A program made the position numbers and the translations under genes. Shown here in pieces: positions 35,562-44,767 of a DNA stretch of 64,000 bases (its first letter is position 1; every line of letters begins with the position of its first letter). Under the pieces are notes generated by a model that searched no databases, was not told the origin of the DNA, and saw only the letters and a program-made list of their open reading frames with translations. Origin of the DNA: Fimbriimonas sp. (GTDB lineage: Bacteria; Armatimonadota; Fimbriimonadia; Fimbriimonadales; Fimbriimonadaceae); NCBI GenBank assembly GCA_031292555.1, contig JARLGV010000021.1, positions 1 through 64,000 of the forward strand, read 5' to 3'.

Positions 35562-37394
35562 ATGCGCAGCTTGCGAAGCCAACTGATATTGAGCCACATG
35601 ACGCTCGTCCTTCTTATGGGCTTTGTGATGAGCGGAGCAAGCATCGCTTTCTTTTCGATCACCCAATCGGTCGACCGAGTCCTCCAAGGCAATTTCCGGA
35701 CCATCCTTGCAGCACAGGAGATGAACTCGTCGCTTCAGGAACAGGAAACCGCATTTGCGTTGCTCGCGACTGGAGATTCAAGAGAGGCGACCTCCGCCTA
35801 TACACTGTCAAAGGAAGCGTTCGAGAAAGCACTCCAAGATGCAACAAGAACGGTGATTACGGATGAGCAAAGGCATATCGTTGCCGACATGAAAACAGCC
35901 TATTTGCCCTATCGGGGCCGGGCATTCCGCGTTTTCAAAGGTTGGGACGATCCAACGATCTCAGGACTGGCTAAGTCGGAATGGTCCTCCCTTCGCCCTG
36001 AATTTCAGAAAATGCGGACCCTCAGCCGCAAGCTCCTAACCGCCAGTCGGCTCGCGATCTTAATGGACAACGACCGTGCGCGCGAAAGCTCGAAAACCGC
36101 TTTCTGGAAGAGCGTAAGCATCACGATCGCTTCGATGTTACTGGCAGCCGTGTTTGCGACGACTATGATTCGCCGAATACTTACTCCGCTTGCCGCCCTT
36201 GGACATCATGCGGAGCGAATCGCGTCCGGCGACCTGTCGCAGCATGCCATAAAGCCAAGAGCCGATGAGATTGGCGCACTGGCAGACAGCTTCAACGAGA
36301 TGGCCGCGAAACTCGCGGAGGTTCGAAAGAGCGAGGTGCGCAAGATGCAGCGCCTGGAACGAATCTCGGAGGCAGCGCTTGAGTCCCTATACGATCCGTT
36401 GATCATCACCGATGCCAAGGGCAGAATCATACGGCTGAACAAGGCCGCCGAAGCGCTTTTCGGGCCGGCGCCCCGCACTCCGCGAAAACCGGTGGCCGAA
36501 CACATATCGGACAGGCGAATCCTTAAGGCGATTGAAGACGCCATCAGCGTACGTCAGGTGTCGGCAGGAGAGGACGAGAGCCTACAAGTTCAGATATTGG
36601 TTGGCGACGACAACAAGACCTATCGACTTCGCGCCACACCAATGACAGGCGATGATGGCAATCTTGTGGGAAGTGTCACCGTACTTGAGGACATTACGTA
36701 CCTCAAAGTGCTCGACAGGATGAAGAACGAATTCATCGGGGTCGCGTCGCACGAGCTTCGGACGCCCGTCACCTCTCTTATCCTGTCGGTGCAGCTTTTA
36801 CGGGAAGGAGCTGCCGGACCGCTGTCGGAGGCACAATCCCAGGTCATCGAAGCGCAACAGCAGGATCTCAGCCGCCTTGAGAAGCTGATGCGGGACCTGC
36901 TTGATATCACCAAACTTGAAGCTGGCATGTCCAGTCCGAGGAAGGAGGGCATCCCGGCATTGGACCTCATGCTCCAGCCCGTAGAGAACCTAAAGCTTCA
37001 GGCCTCGAAGAAGGGAGTGGACCTGGTTCTGGAGACCTCAGACGACCTTCCCTTGGTACAGGCAGATCGGAATCAGATCGGCCGCGTTCTGACAAATCTT
37101 GTCGCCAACGCCATTCGTCACACTCCACCAGGAGGTCATGTAAAGGTCCGTGCAGATGCGTCGGAGAATGTTGTAACCTTCTCGGTAGAAGACACAGGCG
37201 AAGGTATTCCTGAGGAATACCGAAAGCGTGTGTTTGAGCGCTTTGTTCAGGTTCCGGGAGCCACGCAGGGTGGCGCTGGACTCGGTCTTTCGATCGCAAA
37301 TGGCATCGTCAAGGCTCATGGAGGCGAAATGAGTGTTGAAAGCCGAATTGGAATTGGCAGCACTTTTCGCTTCACGTTGCCGATAATGAGATGA
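35562..37394 (+). CDS. Sensor histidine kinase (HAMP-PAS-HisKA-HATPase)
   Basis: The 610-residue membrane kinase has TM1 (about residues 10-30), a helical periplasmic sensor of about 150 residues, TM2 (about 185-205) and a HAMP domain (LTPLAALGHHAERIASGDLSQ). A PAS domain follows (ESLYDPLIITDAKGRIIRLNKAAEALFG). Next are the dimerisation helix with His397 in SHELRTP, and the ATPase with LVANAIRHTP (N box), DTGEGIP (G1) and GAGLGLSI (G2). It starts a plus-strand run of four or five genes with the response regulator, a KdpD fragment and a KimA-like transporter. The stimulus is unknown; context suggests potassium or turgor. Confidence 0.95.
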   Translation: MRSLRSQLILSHMTLVLLMGFVMSGASIAFFSITQSVDRVLQGNFRTILAAQEMNSSLQEQETAFALLATGDSREATSAYTLSKEAFEKALQDATRTVITDEQRHIVADMKTAYLPYRGRAFRVFKGWDDPTISGLAKSEWSSLRPEFQKMRTLSRKLLTASRLAILMDNDRARESSKTAFWKSVSITIASMLLAAVFATTMIRRILTPLAALGHHAERIASGDLSQHAIKPRADEIGALADSFNEMAAKLAEVRKSEVRKMQRLERISEAALESLYDPLIITDAKGRIIRLNKAAEALFGPAPRTPRKPVAEHISDRRILKAIEDAISVRQVSAGEDESLQVQILVGDDNKTYRLRATPMTGDDGNLVGSVTVLEDITYLKVLDRMKNEFIGVASHELRTPVTSLILSVQLLREGAAGPLSEAQSQVIEAQQQDLSRLEKLMRDLLDITKLEAGMSSPRKEGIPALDLMLQPVENLKLQASKKGVDLVLETSDDLPLVQADRNQIGRVLTNLVANAIRHTPPGGHVKVRADASENVVTFSVEDTGEGIPEEYRKRVFERFVQVPGATQGGAGLGLSIANGIVKAHGGEMSVESRIGIGSTFRFTLPIMR

Positions 37395-37416
37395 GAAGCG
37401 CAGAGGATATGTAGTT

Positions 37417-38190
37417 TTGAGTTCAAGAATCCTTTTGATCGACGACGAGCCCAACATCCGCACGATGATCAAGCTCGTGCTTGAGCACGCTGGTTACGAG
37501 GTTGATGTCGCAGCAGACGGGATGCAGGGGCTGGCCAAATTCGGCAACGGAGCCGACTGGGATTTGGTCTTGCTGGACCAGCGAATGCCGGGTATGGCCG
37601 GAATCGATGTACAGAGACAGATCCTTAGCCGCCGAAACGATACACGGTTGATTCTCATTACTGCGTTCGGGACTATCGACTTAGCTTTGGAAGCTATTCA
37701 AGCAGGCGCCTCGGATTTTCTGCGGAAGCCATTCACTGCCGAAATGCTGCGCAGCACAGTCAGCACCGTGCTTGATCGACCGGTACAGCGCATGACGGCA
37801 GTTCCCGTCGGAATGGTGTGCCGCGAATTCACGCGCACGACAATCAACGGCTTCAGTTTCGATTTGGACCACCAGGCAGTCGATGAAAACACGGACGATA
37901 TGACCTGTGTCTTTAACGTAAACCACGCAGGAGCCGCCTCAAGAAAGGTGAAAGTAGAATTACCAGCTTACGTGATGGAACTCGTAAGGGCCTACGTGGA
38001 TTCTGATAACGTTCCGGGCGGGGGGCGATTCTGGCAAGCCATGTGTGAGGAGGCATTAGCCAACTATCTATGGCAAAATGCCGAGGCCCCCTCCGATAAT
38101 GTGGTCAGGATTGAGGATCTTTCGAGTACCCTTACACGCTGGCTCGATTCTGTATTAACAATTAGCCTAGCTGAAGACAATGCCCGATAG
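37417..38190 (+). CDS. Response regulator with unrecognised output domain
   Basis: Residues 1-120 are a complete receiver domain: acidic pair Asp9/Asp10, phosphoacceptor Asp54 in LVLLDQRMPGM, Thr82 in LILITAFG and Lys104 in FLRKPF. Residues about 135-257 do not look like a known DNA-binding output domain. They contain FNVNHAGAASRKVKVELPAYVMELVRAYV and FWQAMCEEALANYLWQNA, a mixed alpha/beta segment. The start is TTG, with AGAGGA ten bases before it. It overlaps the KdpD-like gene by 11 bases. Output may be through protein contact, perhaps with the KdpD fragment, not through DNA; that is a hypothesis. Confidence 0.9.
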   Translation: MSSRILLIDDEPNIRTMIKLVLEHAGYEVDVAADGMQGLAKFGNGADWDLVLLDQRMPGMAGIDVQRQILSRRNDTRLILITAFGTIDLALEAIQAGASDFLRKPFTAEMLRSTVSTVLDRPVQRMTAVPVGMVCREFTRTTINGFSFDLDHQAVDENTDDMTCVFNVNHAGAASRKVKVELPAYVMELVRAYVDSDNVPGGGRFWQAMCEEALANYLWQNAEAPSDNVVRIEDLSSTLTRWLDSVLTISLAEDNAR

Positions 38191-39277
38191 TCAGACAAAC
38201 TCTGCCAAGACTGGTGGAAGACATAAGATTTTCCTTAGCTATGCGCCAGGCGTAGGCAAGACCCACGCAATGCTTGAAGAGGCGCACCGACGAAGCAAAC
38301 GCGGGCAGGATGTGGTGATCGGTCTTGTCGATCCCGCTAACCGAGACCCGGTTAGCGAACTTGCGGTCGGCATCGAGGCCATTCCCCCCAAGGTCGTCAA
38401 CGACTCTCCAGAGTTGGATGTGGATGCGGTAATCGCCCGTAAGCCGGGCTGCGTTCTCGTCGACGATCTGGAGCATACGAATGCTCCTGGTTCGGTGAGG
38501 GAGAAGCGGTGGCAAGACGTCCAAGTGCTGCTAGACGCCGGCATCAACGTGCTATCAACCGTCAACGTCTATCACCTTGAAAGCCTCAACGATAACATCG
38601 CCGATATTATCGGCACGAAGATCAAGGATACGATTCCCGATCAGATACTCCGAGACGCGGCGGAAGTCGAATACATCGACTTGACTCCCCGCGCTTTGAT
38701 GAATCGACTTGATCGCGGAGATCTTTACGACGTAGACCGCGTGACTCCCGAAGTAGTGAGTTTCTTCCGGGAAGGCAATCTAAGCGCCTTGCGCGAAATT
38801 GCGATGCGCGAAGCTGCGAGTTGCGTGGACGAGGACCTCGTCGAGTACCGCAAGGATAAGCGAATCGAGAGACCCTGGGCAACTCAGGATCGAGTCATGA
38901 TCTGTGTCAGTTCAACGCGGAGTGCTTTGCGCTTGATCCGTCGGGGATGGCGCATGGGACAGCGTATGCACGGCGAGGTTCTTGCCGTACATGTAGAAAA
39001 CGGCCCAATCGGAGATCGCGAGAGAAAGATACTTGCCGACGACTTCAAGTTGGCCGAGCGCCTCGGCATCCAGACATTCACGCTGAAGGGCGAGTTGGCT
39101 CCGACGCTCATTGAATTTGCCAAAGAACGGAACGTAACGCAGTTGATCATTGGCCATCCGCAGAGGAATCGCTTCCAAGAGATTCTTCGCCCGGCCGTAC
39201 TTGCCGAACTCGTCAAGGCCCTTCGAACCGTGGACATCCTTGTGGTTGCCACTGAATCCCCATCCGGAGAAGCGTAG
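38180..39277 (+). CDS. Truncated KdpD: osmosensitive K+ sensor domain plus Usp domain
   Basis: The 365-residue protein matches the cytoplasmic N-terminal half of KdpD. The Walker-A-like site is YAPGVGKTHAMLEEA, the Walker B CVLVDDLEHTNAPGS, then YHLESLNDNIADIIG and IDLTPRALMNRLDRGD. A universal stress protein domain covers residues about 240-360 (VMICVSSTRSALRLIRRG, TQLIIGHPQRNRFQEIL). The four membrane helices and the kinase of full KdpD are absent. Similar short KdpD proteins are known in Anabaena and Deinococcus. In Staphylococcus aureus the KdpD Usp domain binds c-di-AMP. Here the kinase function may be supplied by the separate histidine kinase gene two genes upstream. No kdpFABC is present in the window. 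Confidence 0.93.
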   Translation: MPDSQTNSAKTGGRHKIFLSYAPGVGKTHAMLEEAHRRSKRGQDVVIGLVDPANRDPVSELAVGIEAIPPKVVNDSPELDVDAVIARKPGCVLVDDLEHTNAPGSVREKRWQDVQVLLDAGINVLSTVNVYHLESLNDNIADIIGTKIKDTIPDQILRDAAEVEYIDLTPRALMNRLDRGDLYDVDRVTPEVVSFFREGNLSALREIAMREAASCVDEDLVEYRKDKRIERPWATQDRVMICVSSTRSALRLIRRGWRMGQRMHGEVLAVHVENGPIGDRERKILADDFKLAERLGIQTFTLKGELAPTLIEFAKERNVTQLIIGHPQRNRFQEILRPAVLAELVKALRTVDILVVATESPSGEA

Positions 39278-39353
39278 GCCGCTACCGGTTTTGTGCGATT
39301 GGGCCGCAGCGTCGCTGTCCTGCTATGATCAAGAGTTGGACATCTGACAGCAT

Positions 39354-41225
39354 ATGAGTGTAACGTCAAAGCCAAGCGCGATGCATCGAATCCGCAGGTT
39401 CCTCCTCGGGGCGCCCATTCCTACTTCGAGGGCCCACCACGAGCGACTTTCGCCTTTCCTTGGACTTCCGGTGTTCAGCTCGGACTCCCTTTCCTCCGTT
39501 GCCTATGCCACGGAGGCGATTCTCGGCGTCTTGATTCTGGGCAGCACCGGCTACCTCTCGCATCAGATTTTTATATCCATCGCGATCGTGGTCCTGATCG
39601 TAATCATCGCGTTTTCATATCAGCAGACGATTCATGCCTACCCTTCGGGGGGCGGATCGTACATTGTCGCGTCTGAAAACCTCGGTGAAACAGCCGGCCT
39701 TTTCGCCGCCGCCGCCTTACTCATCGACTACGTCCTGACGGTGTCAGTTTCGATCGCGGCAGGCGTGTTGGCAATAACTGCGCTCTATCCTTTCCTTCTG
39801 CAGCACTTGGTCGTGCTTTCGCTTGCCTGCATCCTGGGAGTCGCGTACGCCAATCTGCGCGGCGTTCGCGAATCCGGCGCCATTTTTGCCTTTCCAACCT
39901 ATGGGTTTGTAGTTTCCATTCTGGTCATGATCGTATTCGGCATCTGGCGGGCGATGACCACCCACATACCGACACAAGTTCTTGATCCGACTCCTTGGGC
40001 GGGCAAGGAAAGCAATCACGCACTGATGTTCATCGTCCTTCGCTCGTTCGCTGCAGGCTGCACGGCATTGACGGGGATTGAAGCGGTCAGCAATGGCGTA
40101 CAGGCGTTCCGAGCACCTGAATCCGTGAATGCAGCTAAAGTGCTTCGATGGATGGCCTTCCTACTGAGCATCCTCTTCATCGGCATTAGTTGGCTAGCAA
40201 CCAAGATTCCCCACCTTTCGCTTCTTCCCAACGACGATAAGAACTACACAACCGTGTGCTACCAGGTGGCAGTCTACGCGTTCGGCAGCGCAGGCTCATG
40301 GCTGGTCTACGTCGTACAGCTATTCACGGCACTCATCCTGATTCTCGCAGCCAATACGGCGTTTGCCGATTTTCCGCGTTTGACCAGCCTCATCGCTCGC
40401 GATGGCTATCTTCCCCGCTATCTAGCAAGGCAGGGCGACAAACTCGTCTTTCACAATGGCATTCTCCTTTTGGCTGCGGCTGCGGGCGCGCTCGTTGTGA
40501 TTTTCAAGGGACAACTCGATCTGCTACTGCCCCTCTATGCGATCGGCGTCTTCACCGCGTTCACGCTTTCGCAGATCGGAATGGTGGTCCACTGGCTGAA
40601 AGATAAGGGCATCGGATGGCAGCGCAGCATCGTCATCAATGGGATTGGCTCCGTACTGTGCGCCATTGTCTTGGTCATCATCGCCTACACGAAATTCACC
40701 GAGGGAGCTTGGGTCGTTCTTCTGTTGTTGCCGATTTTCTACGGCGGCTTCAAACTCATCAAAGTCCGATACGACTCAATCGCACTTCAACTTGAACTGG
40801 ACGAGGCTCCCGATATTCCGGTCCATGGCCACATGGTTTTGCTCTTGGTTCCTCGAGTCCATCGCGGAATCACTCAAGCACTCGAATACGCCACGATGCT
40901 GAAAGGGGAATGCCAAGCCGTTCATGTGACTATCAATGAGAAGAATCTGCCCGACCTGCAGCGACAATGGACCCATATCGGCACCGAAGTTCCCCTCGTG
41001 GTATTGCCGTCTCCGTTCCGTTCGCTAATTGCACCGATCTTGGGTTATGTCGACGAACTTCGACAAGATAATCCCGAGGTTCTTATCACGGTCGTTGTTG
41101 CCGAAGCCGTATCGACCAAATGGTATCAGAGAGTACTATCCGAGAACATAACTCCCCAGCTTAAGGGTGCCTTGGCCAGCCGACGGAACGTCGTCGTCGC
41201 GAATGTGCGTTATTTCCTGAATTGA
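39354..41225 (+). CDS. KimA-like potassium/amino-acid APC transporter
   Basis: The 623-residue protein has about 12 transmembrane helices and starts with the phrase PFLGLPVFSSDSLSSVAYATEAIL, diagnostic of the KimA (YdaO) group of APC transporters. YPSGGGSYIVASENLG and DFPRLTSLIARDGYLPRYLARQGDKL are also typical. The last 130 residues are a cytosolic Usp-like domain (VLLLVPRVHRGITQALEYATML, VLITVVVAE). KimA proteins are high-affinity K+ importers inhibited by c-di-AMP. Placed after a KdpD fragment, potassium uptake is the best guess. The gap to the KdpD gene is 76 bases, too short for a c-di-AMP riboswitch, with a TATGAT at 39324-39329. Confidence 0.88.
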   Translation: MSVTSKPSAMHRIRRFLLGAPIPTSRAHHERLSPFLGLPVFSSDSLSSVAYATEAILGVLILGSTGYLSHQIFISIAIVVLIVIIAFSYQQTIHAYPSGGGSYIVASENLGETAGLFAAAALLIDYVLTVSVSIAAGVLAITALYPFLLQHLVVLSLACILGVAYANLRGVRESGAIFAFPTYGFVVSILVMIVFGIWRAMTTHIPTQVLDPTPWAGKESNHALMFIVLRSFAAGCTALTGIEAVSNGVQAFRAPESVNAAKVLRWMAFLLSILFIGISWLATKIPHLSLLPNDDKNYTTVCYQVAVYAFGSAGSWLVYVVQLFTALILILAANTAFADFPRLTSLIARDGYLPRYLARQGDKLVFHNGILLLAAAAGALVVIFKGQLDLLLPLYAIGVFTAFTLSQIGMVVHWLKDKGIGWQRSIVINGIGSVLCAIVLVIIAYTKFTEGAWVVLLLLPIFYGGFKLIKVRYDSIALQLELDEAPDIPVHGHMVLLLVPRVHRGITQALEYATMLKGECQAVHVTINEKNLPDLQRQWTHIGTEVPLVVLPSPFRSLIAPILGYVDELRQDNPEVLITVVVAEAVSTKWYQRVLSENITPQLKGALASRRNVVVANVRYFLN

Positions 41226-41232
41226 CATCTCC

Positions 41233-41574
41233 ATGAGCCAGATCAACATAAGTCCATCGGGCATCGTCATTGAAGAAGAAGAACTTGGCGGCTTCGGTGG
41301 ATTTCCGGACAAGGTCTATCTCATTTCGGTTGGCGGCGATAAGTATGCGTGCAACAATGCCACCGCTTCAGACGGTCAGCGTCTCGACGGCTTGGCAACT
41401 TTCCCAGACCCCGACGAAGCAACGACTTATATGGGTCTGCTGGCCGGATTATCGGGTGAAATCGTATCGAAGAGCTTTGAGGAAGCCCGAGAGATCGCAA
41501 AGAGCAAGCCAATTCTGTCTTGTCTGTTCTTGTTTTCCGGTGGGCATATCGTGGAAATCCACTTTATCCGTTAG
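41233..41574 (+). CDS. Small hypothetical protein after the KimA-like gene
   Basis: I do not recognise this 113-residue protein. It is acidic and mostly beta, with a central charged helix (KVYLISVGGDKYACNNATA, then EATTYMGLLAGLSGEIVSKSFEEAREIAKSKP). It has no signal peptide or membrane span. It starts only seven bases after the KimA-like stop on the same strand, which is the best evidence that it is expressed and may belong to the potassium cluster, for instance as a small regulator. No clear Shine-Dalgarno. Confidence 0.65.
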   Translation: MSQINISPSGIVIEEEELGGFGGFPDKVYLISVGGDKYACNNATASDGQRLDGLATFPDPDEATTYMGLLAGLSGEIVSKSFEEAREIAKSKPILSCLFLFSGGHIVEIHFIR

Positions 41575-41882: not shown

Positions 41883-42299
41883 ATGAGGTCGAAAACAGCG
41901 CAAACTTCCGAATCTTGGCGACTGAGCCATGTTAAGCCGGAAGAAGAAACTGGCATAATAAGTTCAGTCGTGCGCGAAATTGCCCTGTACAGTGAAGCCG
42001 GAGCATTAGCAGCCTACGAGATCGAGATGTCACCCGCGATCCGAGGCCTGCTCGCCGTACGTCTTTGCGGGCCGGATGGCCGAGTCGCAACTGAGGGCCC
42101 CGTTCCCCGCCACCAACTGACTGACCTTCTTGTTCGGCGCCAGGATCACGTCTATCTAGGGGATGCATCGATTCGTAACTCGGACGATACCGACGACTTG
42201 CTCGTCCATGTAGAGATTCGAGGCAGCAAGCGCGACTTCTGGATTCGGCGAGTAGACCTGGCGGGCGCACTCGTCCGCGTTGGCGAACTCGACATCTAG
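41883..42299 (+). CDS. Hypothetical protein (138 aa)
   Basis: Unrecognised. The frame gives a soluble, charged protein with alternating beta and short helical segments (GIISSVVREIALYSEAGALAAYEIEM, DLLVRRQDHVYLGDA, LLVHVEIRGSKRDFWIRRVDL). There is no cysteine-rich motif, membrane span or signal. It has no strong start signal, and it stands between two weakly defined spacers. It is convergent with feoB. The call rests on frame length, codon texture and the lack of a better frame opposite it. Confidence 0.5.
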   Translation: MRSKTAQTSESWRLSHVKPEEETGIISSVVREIALYSEAGALAAYEIEMSPAIRGLLAVRLCGPDGRVATEGPVPRHQLTDLLVRRQDHVYLGDASIRNSDDTDDLLVHVEIRGSKRDFWIRRVDLAGALVRVGELDI

Positions 42300-42366: not shown

Positions 42367-44562
42367 TCAGCCCCCAAACCATCGGCCGATCTGCTGAACC
42401 GCCACGGCCGCGATATAGGCAAGCACCGTCATGTACGTGAACATGAAGAGGGGCCACTTCCATGAATTGGTTTCTCGCTTTACGGTGGCGAGCGTCGCCA
42501 TGCATTGCGCGCACAGGGCAAAGAAGACCATTAGGCCGACAGCTGTCCAAGGTGTAAATAGTGGTCGGCCGTCGGGCCAGGTCGCCTCATTCAGGGCCTT
42601 CGGAAGGTCCGGTGATTTTTCGTCGACGTCTCCTCCGAGCGAGAAGATGATGCCTAGTGAGGGAACGACGGTCTCACGGGCAGGAAACGCAGAAAGGATC
42701 GAGGTCGTGATCCGCCAATCAAATCCAGCCGGGACGAACGCCGGTTCGATTGCCTTACCGAAACGCCCCAGGATCGAGTTGGCCAACTGGGCGCGATCGA
42801 CCTCTTTGGCGACGTCGTCCTTGGGCGCCCCCGGATTTGAGCCCAGATAGTGTTGAACCACTCCCGCTCTTTGCTGGGTGGACAAACGCGGGAAGTAAGA
42901 CAGACCCCAGATCAGCACCGACATGAAAACGATGATCGTGCCGGCGGTCTTGACGAAGATCTTTGCTCGGAAGTACATCGCGATCCAAACGTCCCTCCAC
43001 CGCGGCCACTGGTAAGGCGGCAATTCCAGCAGGAAGGGCAGCCTCTTGCCCCGAATGACCTTTCGATTGAGGAACCAAACGATCGGGATCGCAACAACAA
43101 GGCCCAGCAAGTGCATCGCAAACAACGCGAAGCCCGCCCAGATCGGACCATATCGCGGTTGGATAAATGCACCTATCAAGAGCAGATAGACCGGAAGACG
43201 CGCACTACACGACATCAGCGGAGCAACTAGGATGGTCGCAAGCCGGCTGTTACGATCGGGCATAACGCGCGCGGCCATGATGCCCGGTATGGCACATGCA
43301 AAGCTGGACAGCAATGGAATGAACGCGCGCCCATTCAGACCGCACCAACCAAAGAGCCGATCCATCAAGAACGCCGCCCGTGACAGATAACCGGTACCCT
43401 CTAGCATCGCAATAAACATGAAGAGGATGAGGATCTGGGGCAAGAATACGAGCATTCCTCCGACGCCCCCAAGAACGCCATCCACGACTAGCGAACGTAC
43501 GACCGGCCACTGAGCGAGGTGGGGACCCACCATGTCCTTGAGCCAACCAAAGCTGGCAAGAATACCGTTCATCAGTGGCTGAGCAAACGTGTAGATCGAC
43601 TGAAACACGAGGTACATCACGGTCAGGAAGACGACCAAGCCAAACACGCGGTGGGTCAGCACTAGGTCGATTCGATCGGTGAGAGACAGGTTCCGGCTCG
43701 CCGTCGTCGACTCTCGAACCACCGCCCGTTTGACCATACTCGCCCACTGATAGCGGCTTGAGACCTCGAGTGCAGGCTTGATAACGCCCTCACGAGTGAG
43801 GCGTTCGCGCGCCTCTCGAAACGCATCCTGCATCTCTGGGAAGTCCTTCAAGAAGGTGTTGAACGGGTCTTCGGGATCGAGGAGTGCCTTCCGAATATCG
43901 GATTTCGTAAAGTCGATCCCCACACGAGCAACTCGCTCCCTCAGGGAAGCGACGCACGTCTCCAGCGCATCGGGAAACCCAATGTCGAAGACTGGAAATC
44001 TGGGACTGGCCAGATTCCTTTCGATCGCATCTTTAAGCTCCTGGAGCCCTTTGTCCCTATGACCCACCATCGGAACGACTTCGACGGCAAGCAAATTGGA
44101 CATCTTTGGCAGGTCAATGGACTGCCCCGACTGCTGGAGCCGATCGACCATCGTCAGCGCAACGACCATCGGGTTGCGCGCTTCGGCTAGCTGGCTGAAG
44201 AAGTAGAGATTGCGCTCAAGGTTCGTGGCATCAAGTACGCATACGAGCAAATCGGGACGTCGCGAGTTTGCGAGCGTTCCTTCAATTACTTCGACCGCCA
44301 CACGTTCGTCCTCAGACACCGCGTACATTGAGTAAAGACCGGGAACGTCAATGCATTCGACTGTTTGCGCATCGAGACGTAGAGCCCCTGAAACCTTCTC
44401 TACTGTGACGCCAGGATAGTTGCCGACCTTCTGATACGACCCAGTTAGGCTGTTAAAGAGCGTCGTCTTGCCGGCATTCGGATTGCCTACAAGCGCGATT
44501 AGGGGTTGGTCGCTATGGAGCTCGGATTTGGCCGACGGCTTATTCGACAGGTTCGACTTCAA
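42367..44562 (-). CDS. feoB: Ferrous iron transport protein B
   Basis: This 731-residue protein is the Fe(II) uptake channel with an N-terminal G domain: G1 GNPNAGKTT (residues 26-34), switch region VGNYPGVTVEK, G3 DVPGLYS. The G4 position reads LTMVDR where most members have N(M/L)xD, a Thr for Asn change that could weaken guanine specificity. The membrane part contains the two Gate motifs (MLVFLPQILILFMFIAMLEGTGYLSRAAFLMDR and the later gate), with the conserved Cys in SCSARLPVYLLL. The TTG at 44562 is taken as start because homologues begin close to the G1 motif. It overlaps feoA by 23 bases and is coupled to it. Confidence 0.96.
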   Translation of the reverse strand: MKSNLSNKPSAKSELHSDQPLIALVGNPNAGKTTLFNSLTGSYQKVGNYPGVTVEKVSGALRLDAQTVECIDVPGLYSMYAVSEDERVAVEVIEGTLANSRRPDLLVCVLDATNLERNLYFFSQLAEARNPMVVALTMVDRLQQSGQSIDLPKMSNLLAVEVVPMVGHRDKGLQELKDAIERNLASPRFPVFDIGFPDALETCVASLRERVARVGIDFTKSDIRKALLDPEDPFNTFLKDFPEMQDAFREARERLTREGVIKPALEVSSRYQWASMVKRAVVRESTTASRNLSLTDRIDLVLTHRVFGLVVFLTVMYLVFQSIYTFAQPLMNGILASFGWLKDMVGPHLAQWPVVRSLVVDGVLGGVGGMLVFLPQILILFMFIAMLEGTGYLSRAAFLMDRLFGWCGLNGRAFIPLLSSFACAIPGIMAARVMPDRNSRLATILVAPLMSCSARLPVYLLLIGAFIQPRYGPIWAGFALFAMHLLGLVVAIPIVWFLNRKVIRGKRLPFLLELPPYQWPRWRDVWIAMYFRAKIFVKTAGTIIVFMSVLIWGLSYFPRLSTQQRAGVVQHYLGSNPGAPKDDVAKEVDRAQLANSILGRFGKAIEPAFVPAGFDWRITTSILSAFPARETVVPSLGIIFSLGGDVDEKSPDLPKALNEATWPDGRPLFTPWTAVGLMVFFALCAQCMATLATVKRETNSWKWPLFMFTYMTVLAYIAAVAVQQIGRWFGG

Positions 44563-44767
44563 GGCCTTTGGTCTCGTTCTTGCGGAGGCACAAGCGATAG
44601 CCACGAAGGTCGATTTCCACTGGATCACCGAACGGCGCCACTTTGACGACTCGGAATGTAGTCCCTTCGGTCAGACCCATTTCAAGGAGCCGATGCATCT
44701 CTCCGGAATCCGACGATACACGCGTGACACGAGCGTTCATTCCCTTCTTTAGTGCGTTAAAACTCAT
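44540..44767 (-). CDS. feoA: Ferrous iron transport protein A
   Basis: The 75-residue protein is an SH3-like FeoA with the typical phrases GEMHRLLEMGLTEGTTFRVVKVAPFGDPVEIDLRGYRLCLRKNE. It works with FeoB at the cytoplasmic side of the membrane. The length is normal. GGAG lies upstream of the ATG. No FeoC follows. The gene is first in the feoAB operon. An inverted repeat lies about 55 bases upstream. Confidence 0.95.
   Translation of the reverse strand: MSFNALKKGMNARVTRVSSDSGEMHRLLEMGLTEGTTFRVVKVAPFGDPVEIDLRGYRLCLRKNETKGLEVEPVE

What the first reader, a model, noticed from the sequence alone, without database searches (positions are those of the whole stretch)
35562..41574. Split potassium-sensing cluster: kinase, regulator, KdpD fragment, KimA-like importer
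The KdpD fragment keeps the ATP-binding and Usp parts but has no kinase; the kinase is a separate HAMP-PAS protein; the transporter is KimA-like, not KdpFABC. KdpD Usp domains and KimA are both known c-di-AMP targets in other bacteria, so the cluster may be a c-di-AMP or K+ controlled uptake module.
Basis: partly seen in the sequence, partly recalled or inferred. Interest (0 to 1): 0.7.

Follow-up and report, generated by a model that had tools for sequence, protein, structure and literature searches.

The report
Split potassium regulator with swapped transporter
A Fimbriimonas-type bacterium carries the potassium-shortage regulator that in its relatives sits beside the KdpFABC potassium pump, but here it sits beside a different potassium importer (KimA), and the sequence signatures of the usual control switches have been lost in both the importer and the regulator fragment.

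Summary
Window 35562-41574 is a compact operon: HAMP-PAS histidine kinase, response regulator, stand-alone KdpD N-terminus+Usp, KimA-like transporter, small ORF.

Comparative genomics explains it. HK-RR-short KdpD is the split Kdp regulator of Armatimonadota. In 14 loci from other families, and in 2 Acidobacteriota loci, it sits beside kdp pump genes. Elsewhere in the phylum the transporter beside it is KimA or a Na+/H+ exchanger. In the window's genus kdpABC lies elsewhere, and 9 of 21 loci carry KimA instead. The KimA keeps every K+-coordinating residue tested, so K+ uptake is very likely.

The genome has a diadenylate cyclase and three c-di-AMP riboswitches (none here). But this KimA clade has lost the c-di-AMP-pocket motif (His579 kept in 75 of 87 KimAs, lost in all 11 of this clade), and the Usp domain matches 2 of 5 Firmicutes positions (a weak test).

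'No kinase' needs correcting: this KdpD domain is a serine kinase in E. coli. Its catalytic Glu is Asp here, lost repeatedly in this family though kept in all 19 short KdpDs outside it. The regulator ends in an undescribed domain. New variant of a known kind.

The parts
35562..37394 (+). Histidine kinase: two TM segments around a helical extracytoplasmic region (no Pfam match), HAMP, PAS, HisKA (His in SHELRTP, from residue 396), HATPase_c with N, G1 and G2 boxes. Orthologues stand beside kdpABC in other Armatimonadota.
37417..38190 (+). Response regulator: receiver with D9, D10, D54 and K104 intact (TTG start).
37774..38187 (+). C-terminal output domain of the response regulator (motif INGFxF...LPAYVxELVxAY...RFWQAxCEEALANYLWQ). 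No known family, no HTH recognised; AF2 model strand-strand-strand-helix-helix-strand-helix, mean pLDDT 80.5.
38180..39277 (+). Short KdpD (365 aa): KdpD N-terminal P-loop domain plus Usp, no TM/GAF/histidine-kinase part.
38249..38263 (+). Walker A of the KdpD domain (GVGKT, residues 24-28), intact.
38462..38467 (+). Walker B Asp95-Asp96; position 96 corresponds to E. coli KdpD catalytic Glu110, replaced by Asp here.
   Evidence: PMC11018627
38873..39253 (+). Usp domain; c-di-AMP positions (S. aureus 242/244/246/249/271) are C,S,T,A,H.
   Evidence: PMC8214093
39354..41225 (+). KimA-type (KUP/APC) transporter, 623 aa; K+ site complete.
40791..41216 (+). Cytosolic C-terminal domain of KimA; c-di-AMP pocket motif HNQS replaced by SENI.
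41233..41574 (+). 113-aa protein of unknown function, 7 nt after kimA; follows kimA in relatives L032, L033, L034, L036 and follows kdpD directly in L035, which lacks kimA there.

Best explanation
The locus is a Kdp-type potassium regulator whose pump has been exchanged. A separate HAMP-PAS histidine kinase, a response regulator with an unusual output domain and a stand-alone KdpD N-terminus/Usp protein form the cassette that in other Armatimonadota families flanks kdpABC; here the K+ importer KimA follows them in one operon. Most likely the kinase senses K+ shortage or the accompanying membrane/osmotic state and phosphorylates the receiver, and the cassette raises or licenses K+ uptake through KimA (inferred). 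The short KdpD is most likely a cytosolic nucleotide-sensing partner of the response regulator: the two are the most constant pair, kept even where kinase, transporter and Walker residues are lost (inferred). Shown by sequence: operon layout, K+ site of KimA, co-conservation, interchangeability with kdpABC, change of the serine-kinase catalytic Glu, loss of the KimA c-di-AMP motif. Not shown: any activity, the direction of control, the ligand, the target of the RR.
For: RR+short KdpD adjacent in 21 of 21 genus/family loci, HK in 14, KimA in 9. RR output domain in 53 of 291 Armatimonadota genomes. Beside the cassette: kdpABC genes in 14 loci of other families (L156, L157, L160-162, L166, L168, L169, L171, L175-178, L182), KimA in 9 (two of them together with Kdp), Na+/H+ exchanger in 2. 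Acidobacteriota L198 and L200 also have kdp genes with HK, RR and short KdpD. Cassette-linked KimAs fall in separate places of the KimA tree (at least 4 label changes). K+ residues D36 Y43 T121 T230 E233 Y377 all kept. The own genome has kdpABC directly followed by a second KimA on another contig and full-length KdpDE on a third, so the window cluster is an additional K+ system. Walker B Glu kept in all 19 short KdpDs outside Fimbriimonadaceae, in 7 of 26 inside.
Against: No expression, binding or transport data. 12 of the 21 genus/family loci have the regulator without KimA beside it, so KimA need not be its only or main target. The split between kdp-linked and unlinked copies is essentially one event on the tree, so the tie between losing kdpABC linkage and losing the Walker B Glu cannot be tested independently (2 usable pairs, no signal). 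The kinase lacks the K+-sensing TM/GAF part of E. coli KdpD, so K+ as its direct signal is a guess.
Confidence: 0.65

Rival explanations
1. c-di-AMP module: at high K+, c-di-AMP binds both the Usp domain of the short KdpD and the cytosolic domain of KimA and shuts uptake.
For: A CdaA-type cyclase and three c-di-AMP riboswitches in the genome show the messenger is very probably used. Short KdpD of D. geothermalis is activated by c-di-AMP (PMC11018627). Arg337 of KimA is kept. Two Deinococcus short KdpDs also lack the Firmicutes Usp motif, so its absence is no proof of non-binding.
Against: KimA pocket motif HNQS is SENI here; His579 is present in 75 of 87 KimAs compared and missing in all 11 of this clade. 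Usp matches 2 of 5 motif positions. No riboswitch at the locus.
Confidence: 0.25
2. The short KdpD is still an atypical serine kinase and phosphorylates a transporter: KdpB encoded elsewhere, or KimA, to stop uptake at high K+.
For: Walker A, Walker B Asp109 and Arg190 equivalents are kept in the window copy; Glu to Asp is conservative. A stand-alone NTD phosphorylates KdpB in vitro (PMC11018627).
Against: The catalytic Glu is changed to D, N or P in 19 of 26 family members, with Walker A Thr also lost in 7, while all 19 outside the family keep it. E110A abolishes activity in E. coli (PMC11018627). The genome's own KdpABC is on another contig and a full-length KdpD exists that could serve it.
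Confidence: 0.15
3. The response regulator acts directly on KimA or KdpD by protein contact rather than on DNA.
For: Its output domain has no recognised DNA-binding family or HTH, is nearly always joined to transporter/KdpD genes and shares no known fold.
Against: One of 40 members weakly matches a ribbon-helix-helix DNA-binding model (E=0.0084), and the model's strand-helix-helix piece would fit that; D. radiodurans' split-Kdp regulator does bind the kdp promoter (PMC5716572).
Confidence: 0.3
4. The permease carries amino acids, and the cluster is an amino-acid-sensing unit that borrowed a KdpD domain.
For: Pfam calls it AA_permease_2.
Against: Full-length match to KimA and none to any amino acid permease structure at E 0.001, all six K+-site residues kept, and the regulator sits with kdpABC in relatives.
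Confidence: 0.04

Closest known systems
Split Kdp regulators of Deinococcus radiodurans, Anabaena, Alicyclobacillus and others (short KdpD-N in the kdp operon, separate sensor kinase and RR)
   Same: Stand-alone KdpD N-terminus/Usp protein plus a separate kinase and response regulator, genetically tied to a K+ transporter (PMC5716572, PMC11018627).
   Different: Here the transporter is KimA instead of KdpFABC, the RR lacks a recognisable DNA-binding domain, and the serine-kinase catalytic Glu is replaced by Asp.
Short KdpD (KdpD/Usp atypical serine kinase) of Deinococcus geothermalis
   Same: Same two domains and length class; Walker A intact.
   Different: Walker B is DD instead of DE and the substrate KdpB is not encoded beside it; c-di-AMP response untested.
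KimA of Bacillus subtilis (6s3k, 8b70, 8b71)
   Same: Full-length homology, complete K+ site, Arg337.
   Different: The c-di-AMP pocket motif HNQS579-582 is SENI; no c-di-AMP riboswitch upstream; linked to a Kdp-type cassette.
KdpDE of Escherichia coli
   Same: KdpD N-terminal and Usp domains; two-component logic; K+ uptake as output in relatives.
   Different: Kinase on a separate chain with extracytoplasmic/HAMP/PAS input instead of TM/GAF; RR not OmpR-type.
NCBIfam NF038185 KdpD_non_kinase
   Same: Best NCBIfam match, aligned over residues 11-358.
   Different: 323 bits, below its cut-off of 550.

Membership tests
Canonical KdpDE two-component system | KdpD N-terminal domain and Usp domain | tested here: met
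   PF02702 E=2e-76, Usp 24.9 bits over cut-off 24
Canonical KdpDE two-component system | Histidine kinase (DHp-CA) on the same chain with TM/GAF | tested here: not met
   365-aa ORF ends after Usp; kinase is a separate HAMP-PAS protein
Canonical KdpDE two-component system | KdpE-like OmpR-type response regulator with winged helix | tested here: not met
   Only the receiver matches Pfam and NCBIfam; C-terminal 130 aa match no DNA-binding family above threshold
Canonical KdpDE two-component system | Genetic linkage to kdpFABC | tested here: not met
   No kdpABC in the genus/family loci read; kdpABC on contig C135 of this genome. Linkage is met in 14 Armatimonadota loci of other families
Split Kdp regulator (short KdpD + separate HK + RR) | Three separate adjacent genes of these types, orthologous to a kdpABC-linked cassette | tested here: met
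Short KdpD atypical serine kinase | Walker A G-X5-GKT and Walker B Asp109 | tested here: met
   GVGKT at residues 24-28 and Asp95
Short KdpD atypical serine kinase | Catalytic Glu110 | tested here: not met
   Asp in the window; D/N/P in 19 of 26 family members
Short KdpD atypical serine kinase | Trp39/Arg190 adenine pair | tested here: inconclusive
   His/Arg in the window, but Tyr/Arg also in full-length KdpDs of the same alignment
Short KdpD atypical serine kinase | Phosphorylates a K+ pump | not testable with these tools
   needs purified protein
c-di-AMP-binding KdpD-Usp | Firmicutes motif (A/G/C)XSXSX2N...(Y/F) | tested here: not met
   C,S kept; T,A,H at the other three positions. Two Deinococcus short KdpDs lack it too, so the motif is a weak test outside Firmicutes
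KimA (KUP family K+/H+ symporter) | Full-length homology including the cytosolic domain | tested here: met
   6s3k, residues 11-621, E=7e-122
KimA (KUP family K+/H+ symporter) | K+-coordinating and proton-coupling residues D36 Y43 T121 T230 E233 Y377 | tested here: met
   all six identical in the window and its 8 cassette-linked genus orthologues
KimA (KUP family K+/H+ symporter) | c-di-AMP pocket (R337, P479, H579, N580, Q581, S582) | tested here: not met
   R337 kept, H579-S582 = SENI, P479 = L
KimA (KUP family K+/H+ symporter) | K+ transport | not testable with these tools
   needs uptake assay
Ribbon-helix-helix DNA-binding domain (RR output domain) | Recognisable RHH profile match and fold | tested here: inconclusive
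   one of 40 members hits PF07878 at E=0.0084; fold searches found no clear match

The most novel reading that the evidence does not exclude
After taking over KimA, the Kdp cassette changed its way of working: the short KdpD is no longer a serine kinase but a nucleotide-sensing adaptor that docks on a response regulator with a new class of output domain, and this pair gates K+ uptake by protein contact instead of by transcription or by c-di-AMP binding to the transporter.
Probability: 0.15. Interest if true: 0.75.

Novelty: new variant of a known kind. Interest (0 to 1): 0.52.

Why it matters
It suggests that KdpD control is not tied to the Kdp pump: one sensor cassette goes with KdpFABC, KimA or a Na+/H+ exchanger across one phylum. 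It offers a natural experiment on what the KdpD N-terminal domain does besides phosphorylating KdpB, since the catalytic Glu was lost repeatedly while the protein and its response-regulator partner were kept. It also supplies an undescribed response-regulator output domain linked to K+ transport in two phyla, and a KimA clade without the known c-di-AMP motif, which would test whether KimA can be controlled another way.

Tried and rejected
Promoter and terminator scans over the cluster gave no more sites than shuffled DNA. Rfam found no riboswitch or other credible RNA in the cluster, only a tRNA elsewhere in the window. The AF2 model of the RR output domain (pLDDT 80.5) gave no Foldseek match at E<=0.001; the best second-look match is DUF1488 2gpi, Z 6.6, below the level that can be trusted. 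Profile searches against PDB, Pfam and NCBIfam gave only weak scattered hits. The AF2 model of the 113-aa protein was poor (pLDDT 46) and was not searched. A tree-based independent-pairs test of 'kdpABC linkage versus Walker B Glu' had only two usable pairs and is uninformative; the plain Fisher p of 1.6e-4 ignores kinship and is not relied on. The RR domain was not found in 301 Chloroflexota or 298 Gemmatimonadota genomes; this is weak evidence of absence. Chance neighbourhood was rejected because the order recurs at low to moderate protein identity (mostly 43-83 %) across the genus. An HK-RR fusion in L042/L068 was set aside because an ambiguous base lies near the joint.
Full report
What is there. 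The window lies in a 6.46 Mb draft genome of the family Fimbriimonadaceae, phylum Armatimonadota; close relatives in the named collection are Armatimonadetes/Fimbriimonadaceae MAGs, and a one-contig 5,231,762-base genome of the same genus group is probably Fimbriimonas ginsengisoli (size from memory, not tested). The five genes are a histidine kinase (35562-37394), a response regulator (37417-38190), a short KdpD (38180-39277), a KimA-like transporter (39354-41225) and a 113-aa protein (41233-41574). The gaps are 22 nt, -11 nt, 76 nt and 7 nt, as in an operon. The kinase has the phosphoacceptor motif SHELRTP and N, G1 and G2 boxes; the receiver keeps D9, D10, D54 and K104. So a working two-component pair is predicted.

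The transporter. It matches B. subtilis KimA (6s3k) over its whole length at E=7e-122 and no amino acid permease structure at E 0.001. Using the residue roles in PMC6994465 and PMC10284832, all six residues D36, Y43, T121, T230, E233 and Y377 are identical in the window protein and its eight cassette-linked genus orthologues. K+ uptake is therefore the best reading. The c-di-AMP pocket is different: Arg337 is kept, but H579-N580-Q581-S582 is S-E-N-I and P479 is L. Among 87 KimA proteins aligned, 75 keep His579; the 12 that do not are the 11 members of the window's clade and one divergent proteobacterial sequence. The second KimA of the same genome, encoded directly after kdpC on contig C135, keeps HNQ. 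The loss is thus a derived trait of this clade.

The short KdpD. It has no histidine kinase, but PMC11018627 showed that the KdpD N-terminal domain is an atypical serine kinase that phosphorylates KdpB Ser162, and that the short KdpD of D. geothermalis does so under c-di-AMP control. I therefore compared the catalytic residues. Walker A (GVGKT), the Walker B Asp and the Arg190 equivalent are kept in the window, but catalytic Glu110 is Asp. On a tree of 45 short KdpDs from the phylum, all 19 outside the Fimbriimonadaceae clade, 13 of them beside kdpABC, have Glu. Within the clade of 26, 7 have Glu, 11 Asp, 7 Asn and 1 Pro; the 7 Asn sequences also have Walker A GKA and come from loci without the kinase gene. 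The states need at least 7 changes on the tree. This looks like relaxed or altered selection on the serine-kinase site once the pump genes were no longer beside it. Because the kdp linkage was lost essentially once, the tree cannot test that cause. Whether Asp supports catalysis is unknown.

The Usp domain. The S. aureus c-di-AMP motif (PMC8214093) is met at 2 of 5 positions (C and S). Two Deinococcus short KdpDs, congeners of the c-di-AMP-responsive D. geothermalis protein, also lack it, so the motif is a poor predictor here. c-di-AMP itself is very probably made: one DAC-domain protein of CdaA type followed by a YbbR/CdaR-like gene (the CdaR call is from the sequence and gene order), and three c-di-AMP riboswitches in the genome. 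None is at this locus.

The response regulator. Beyond the receiver it has about 130 residues that match no Pfam, NCBIfam or PDB family convincingly. AF2 with 21 homologues gives a confident compact domain, strand-strand-strand-helix-helix-strand-helix, with no helix-turn-helix recognised and no trustworthy fold match. One member weakly matches a ribbon-helix-helix model (E=0.0084), so DNA binding is not excluded. The domain was found in 53 of 291 Armatimonadota genomes and in 3 of 297 Acidobacteriota genomes, but not in 301 Chloroflexota or 298 Gemmatimonadota genomes.

What the neighbourhood shows. In loci of other Armatimonadota families the order is mostly kdpA-kdpB-kdpC-HK-RR-short kdpD (14 loci with kdp genes). 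KimA takes or shares the place in others: HK-KimA-RR-KdpD in L158 and L164; KimA-RR-KdpD at a contig end in L167; HK-RR-KimA without KdpD in L179-L181; KimA-HK-RR at a contig end in L174; kdpBC-KimA-HK-RR-KdpD in L176; kdpABC-HK-RR-KdpD-KimA in L178. A Na+/H+ exchanger stands before HK in L165 and L170. In Acidobacteriota L198 and L200 kdp genes again flank HK, RR and short KdpD, and L200 has a KimA next to them. In the window's genus and family, RR and short KdpD are together in 21 of 21 loci, HK in 14, KimA in 9. Cassette-linked KimAs lie in separate parts of the KimA tree (at least 4 label changes). So one regulatory cassette has been combined several times with different monovalent-cation transporters. 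This is the strongest evidence for function, because it links the window operon to Kdp without relying on annotation of KimA.

In other phyla KimA is also found near Kdp genes: within the kdp operon in Anaerolineae (kdpBC-kimA-kdpD), near kdpABC and a short KdpD in Gemmatimonadota, and near kdp genes in Methylomirabilis and Rokubacteria.

Mechanism. Shown: operon layout, intact two-component residues, K+ site, co-conservation, exchange of transporters, the changed serine-kinase Glu and the lost KimA c-di-AMP motif. Inferred: the kinase responds to K+ shortage or osmotic state; the RR is its target; the short KdpD, as the most constant partner of the RR, senses a nucleotide (ATP, perhaps c-di-AMP) and modulates the RR or the transporter; the net output is K+ uptake by KimA. 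Whether the RR acts on DNA or on protein is open.

Comparison with known systems. Split Kdp regulation with a stand-alone KdpD N-terminus is known from Deinococcus, Anabaena and Alicyclobacillus, and separate serine- and histidine-kinase chains were noted in Acidobacteriota and Chloroflexota (PMC11018627, PMC5716572). The 2024 survey covered only species annotated with the Kdp pump and concluded that short KdpD serves post-translational control of KdpFABC. The window differs in the transporter, the RR output domain, and the state of both regulatory sites. My literature searches found no description of this arrangement, but the library is incomplete. I rate it a new variant of a known kind: a solid, testable comparative finding of moderate surprise.

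Noticed in passing
L063 5410-7284 (G000 contig C135): A second KimA is encoded directly after kdpC in the same genome, with the c-di-AMP motif HNQ kept but Tyr377 changed to Phe and Arg337 to His.
   Followed up: partly
L096, L106, L113, L115, L120 (Anaerolineae and other Chloroflexota): KimAs lying within or near kdp operons form one clade in which two K+-coordinating residues are changed (T121L, Y377W), as if a Kdp-linked KimA had taken on a different or regulatory role.
   Followed up: partly
L045-L051: A sub-clade of the genus keeps RR and short KdpD but lacks the histidine kinase and KimA in the locus, and has Walker A GKA and Walker B DN; L049 and L050 have instead an upstream ~400-aa membrane protein with a possible degenerate kinase ATPase end.
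   Followed up: partly
L165 2326-3900, L170 7515-9101: A Na+/H+ exchanger (PF00999) stands directly before HK-RR-short KdpD in two Armatimonadota.
   Followed up: partly
G000:C94:7971-8107, G000:C30:50033-50168, G000:C63:37221-37356: Three c-di-AMP riboswitches above the Rfam cut-off in the own genome; no K+ transporter gene is obvious next to them.
   Followed up: partly
L172 5527-9097: Two response regulators with the same output domain flank one HK of the cassette type, with no KdpD or K+ transporter recognised nearby.
   Followed up: no
window 41883-42299 and 42367-44628: A conserved 138-aa ORF and feoB (opposite strand) follow the cluster in the window and three genus relatives (L032-L034); no family for the 138-aa protein.
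   Followed up: no
L042 (also L068): HK and RR read as one 869-aa frame in one MAG, but an ambiguous base lies near the joint, so the fusion may be an assembly artefact.
   Followed up: partly
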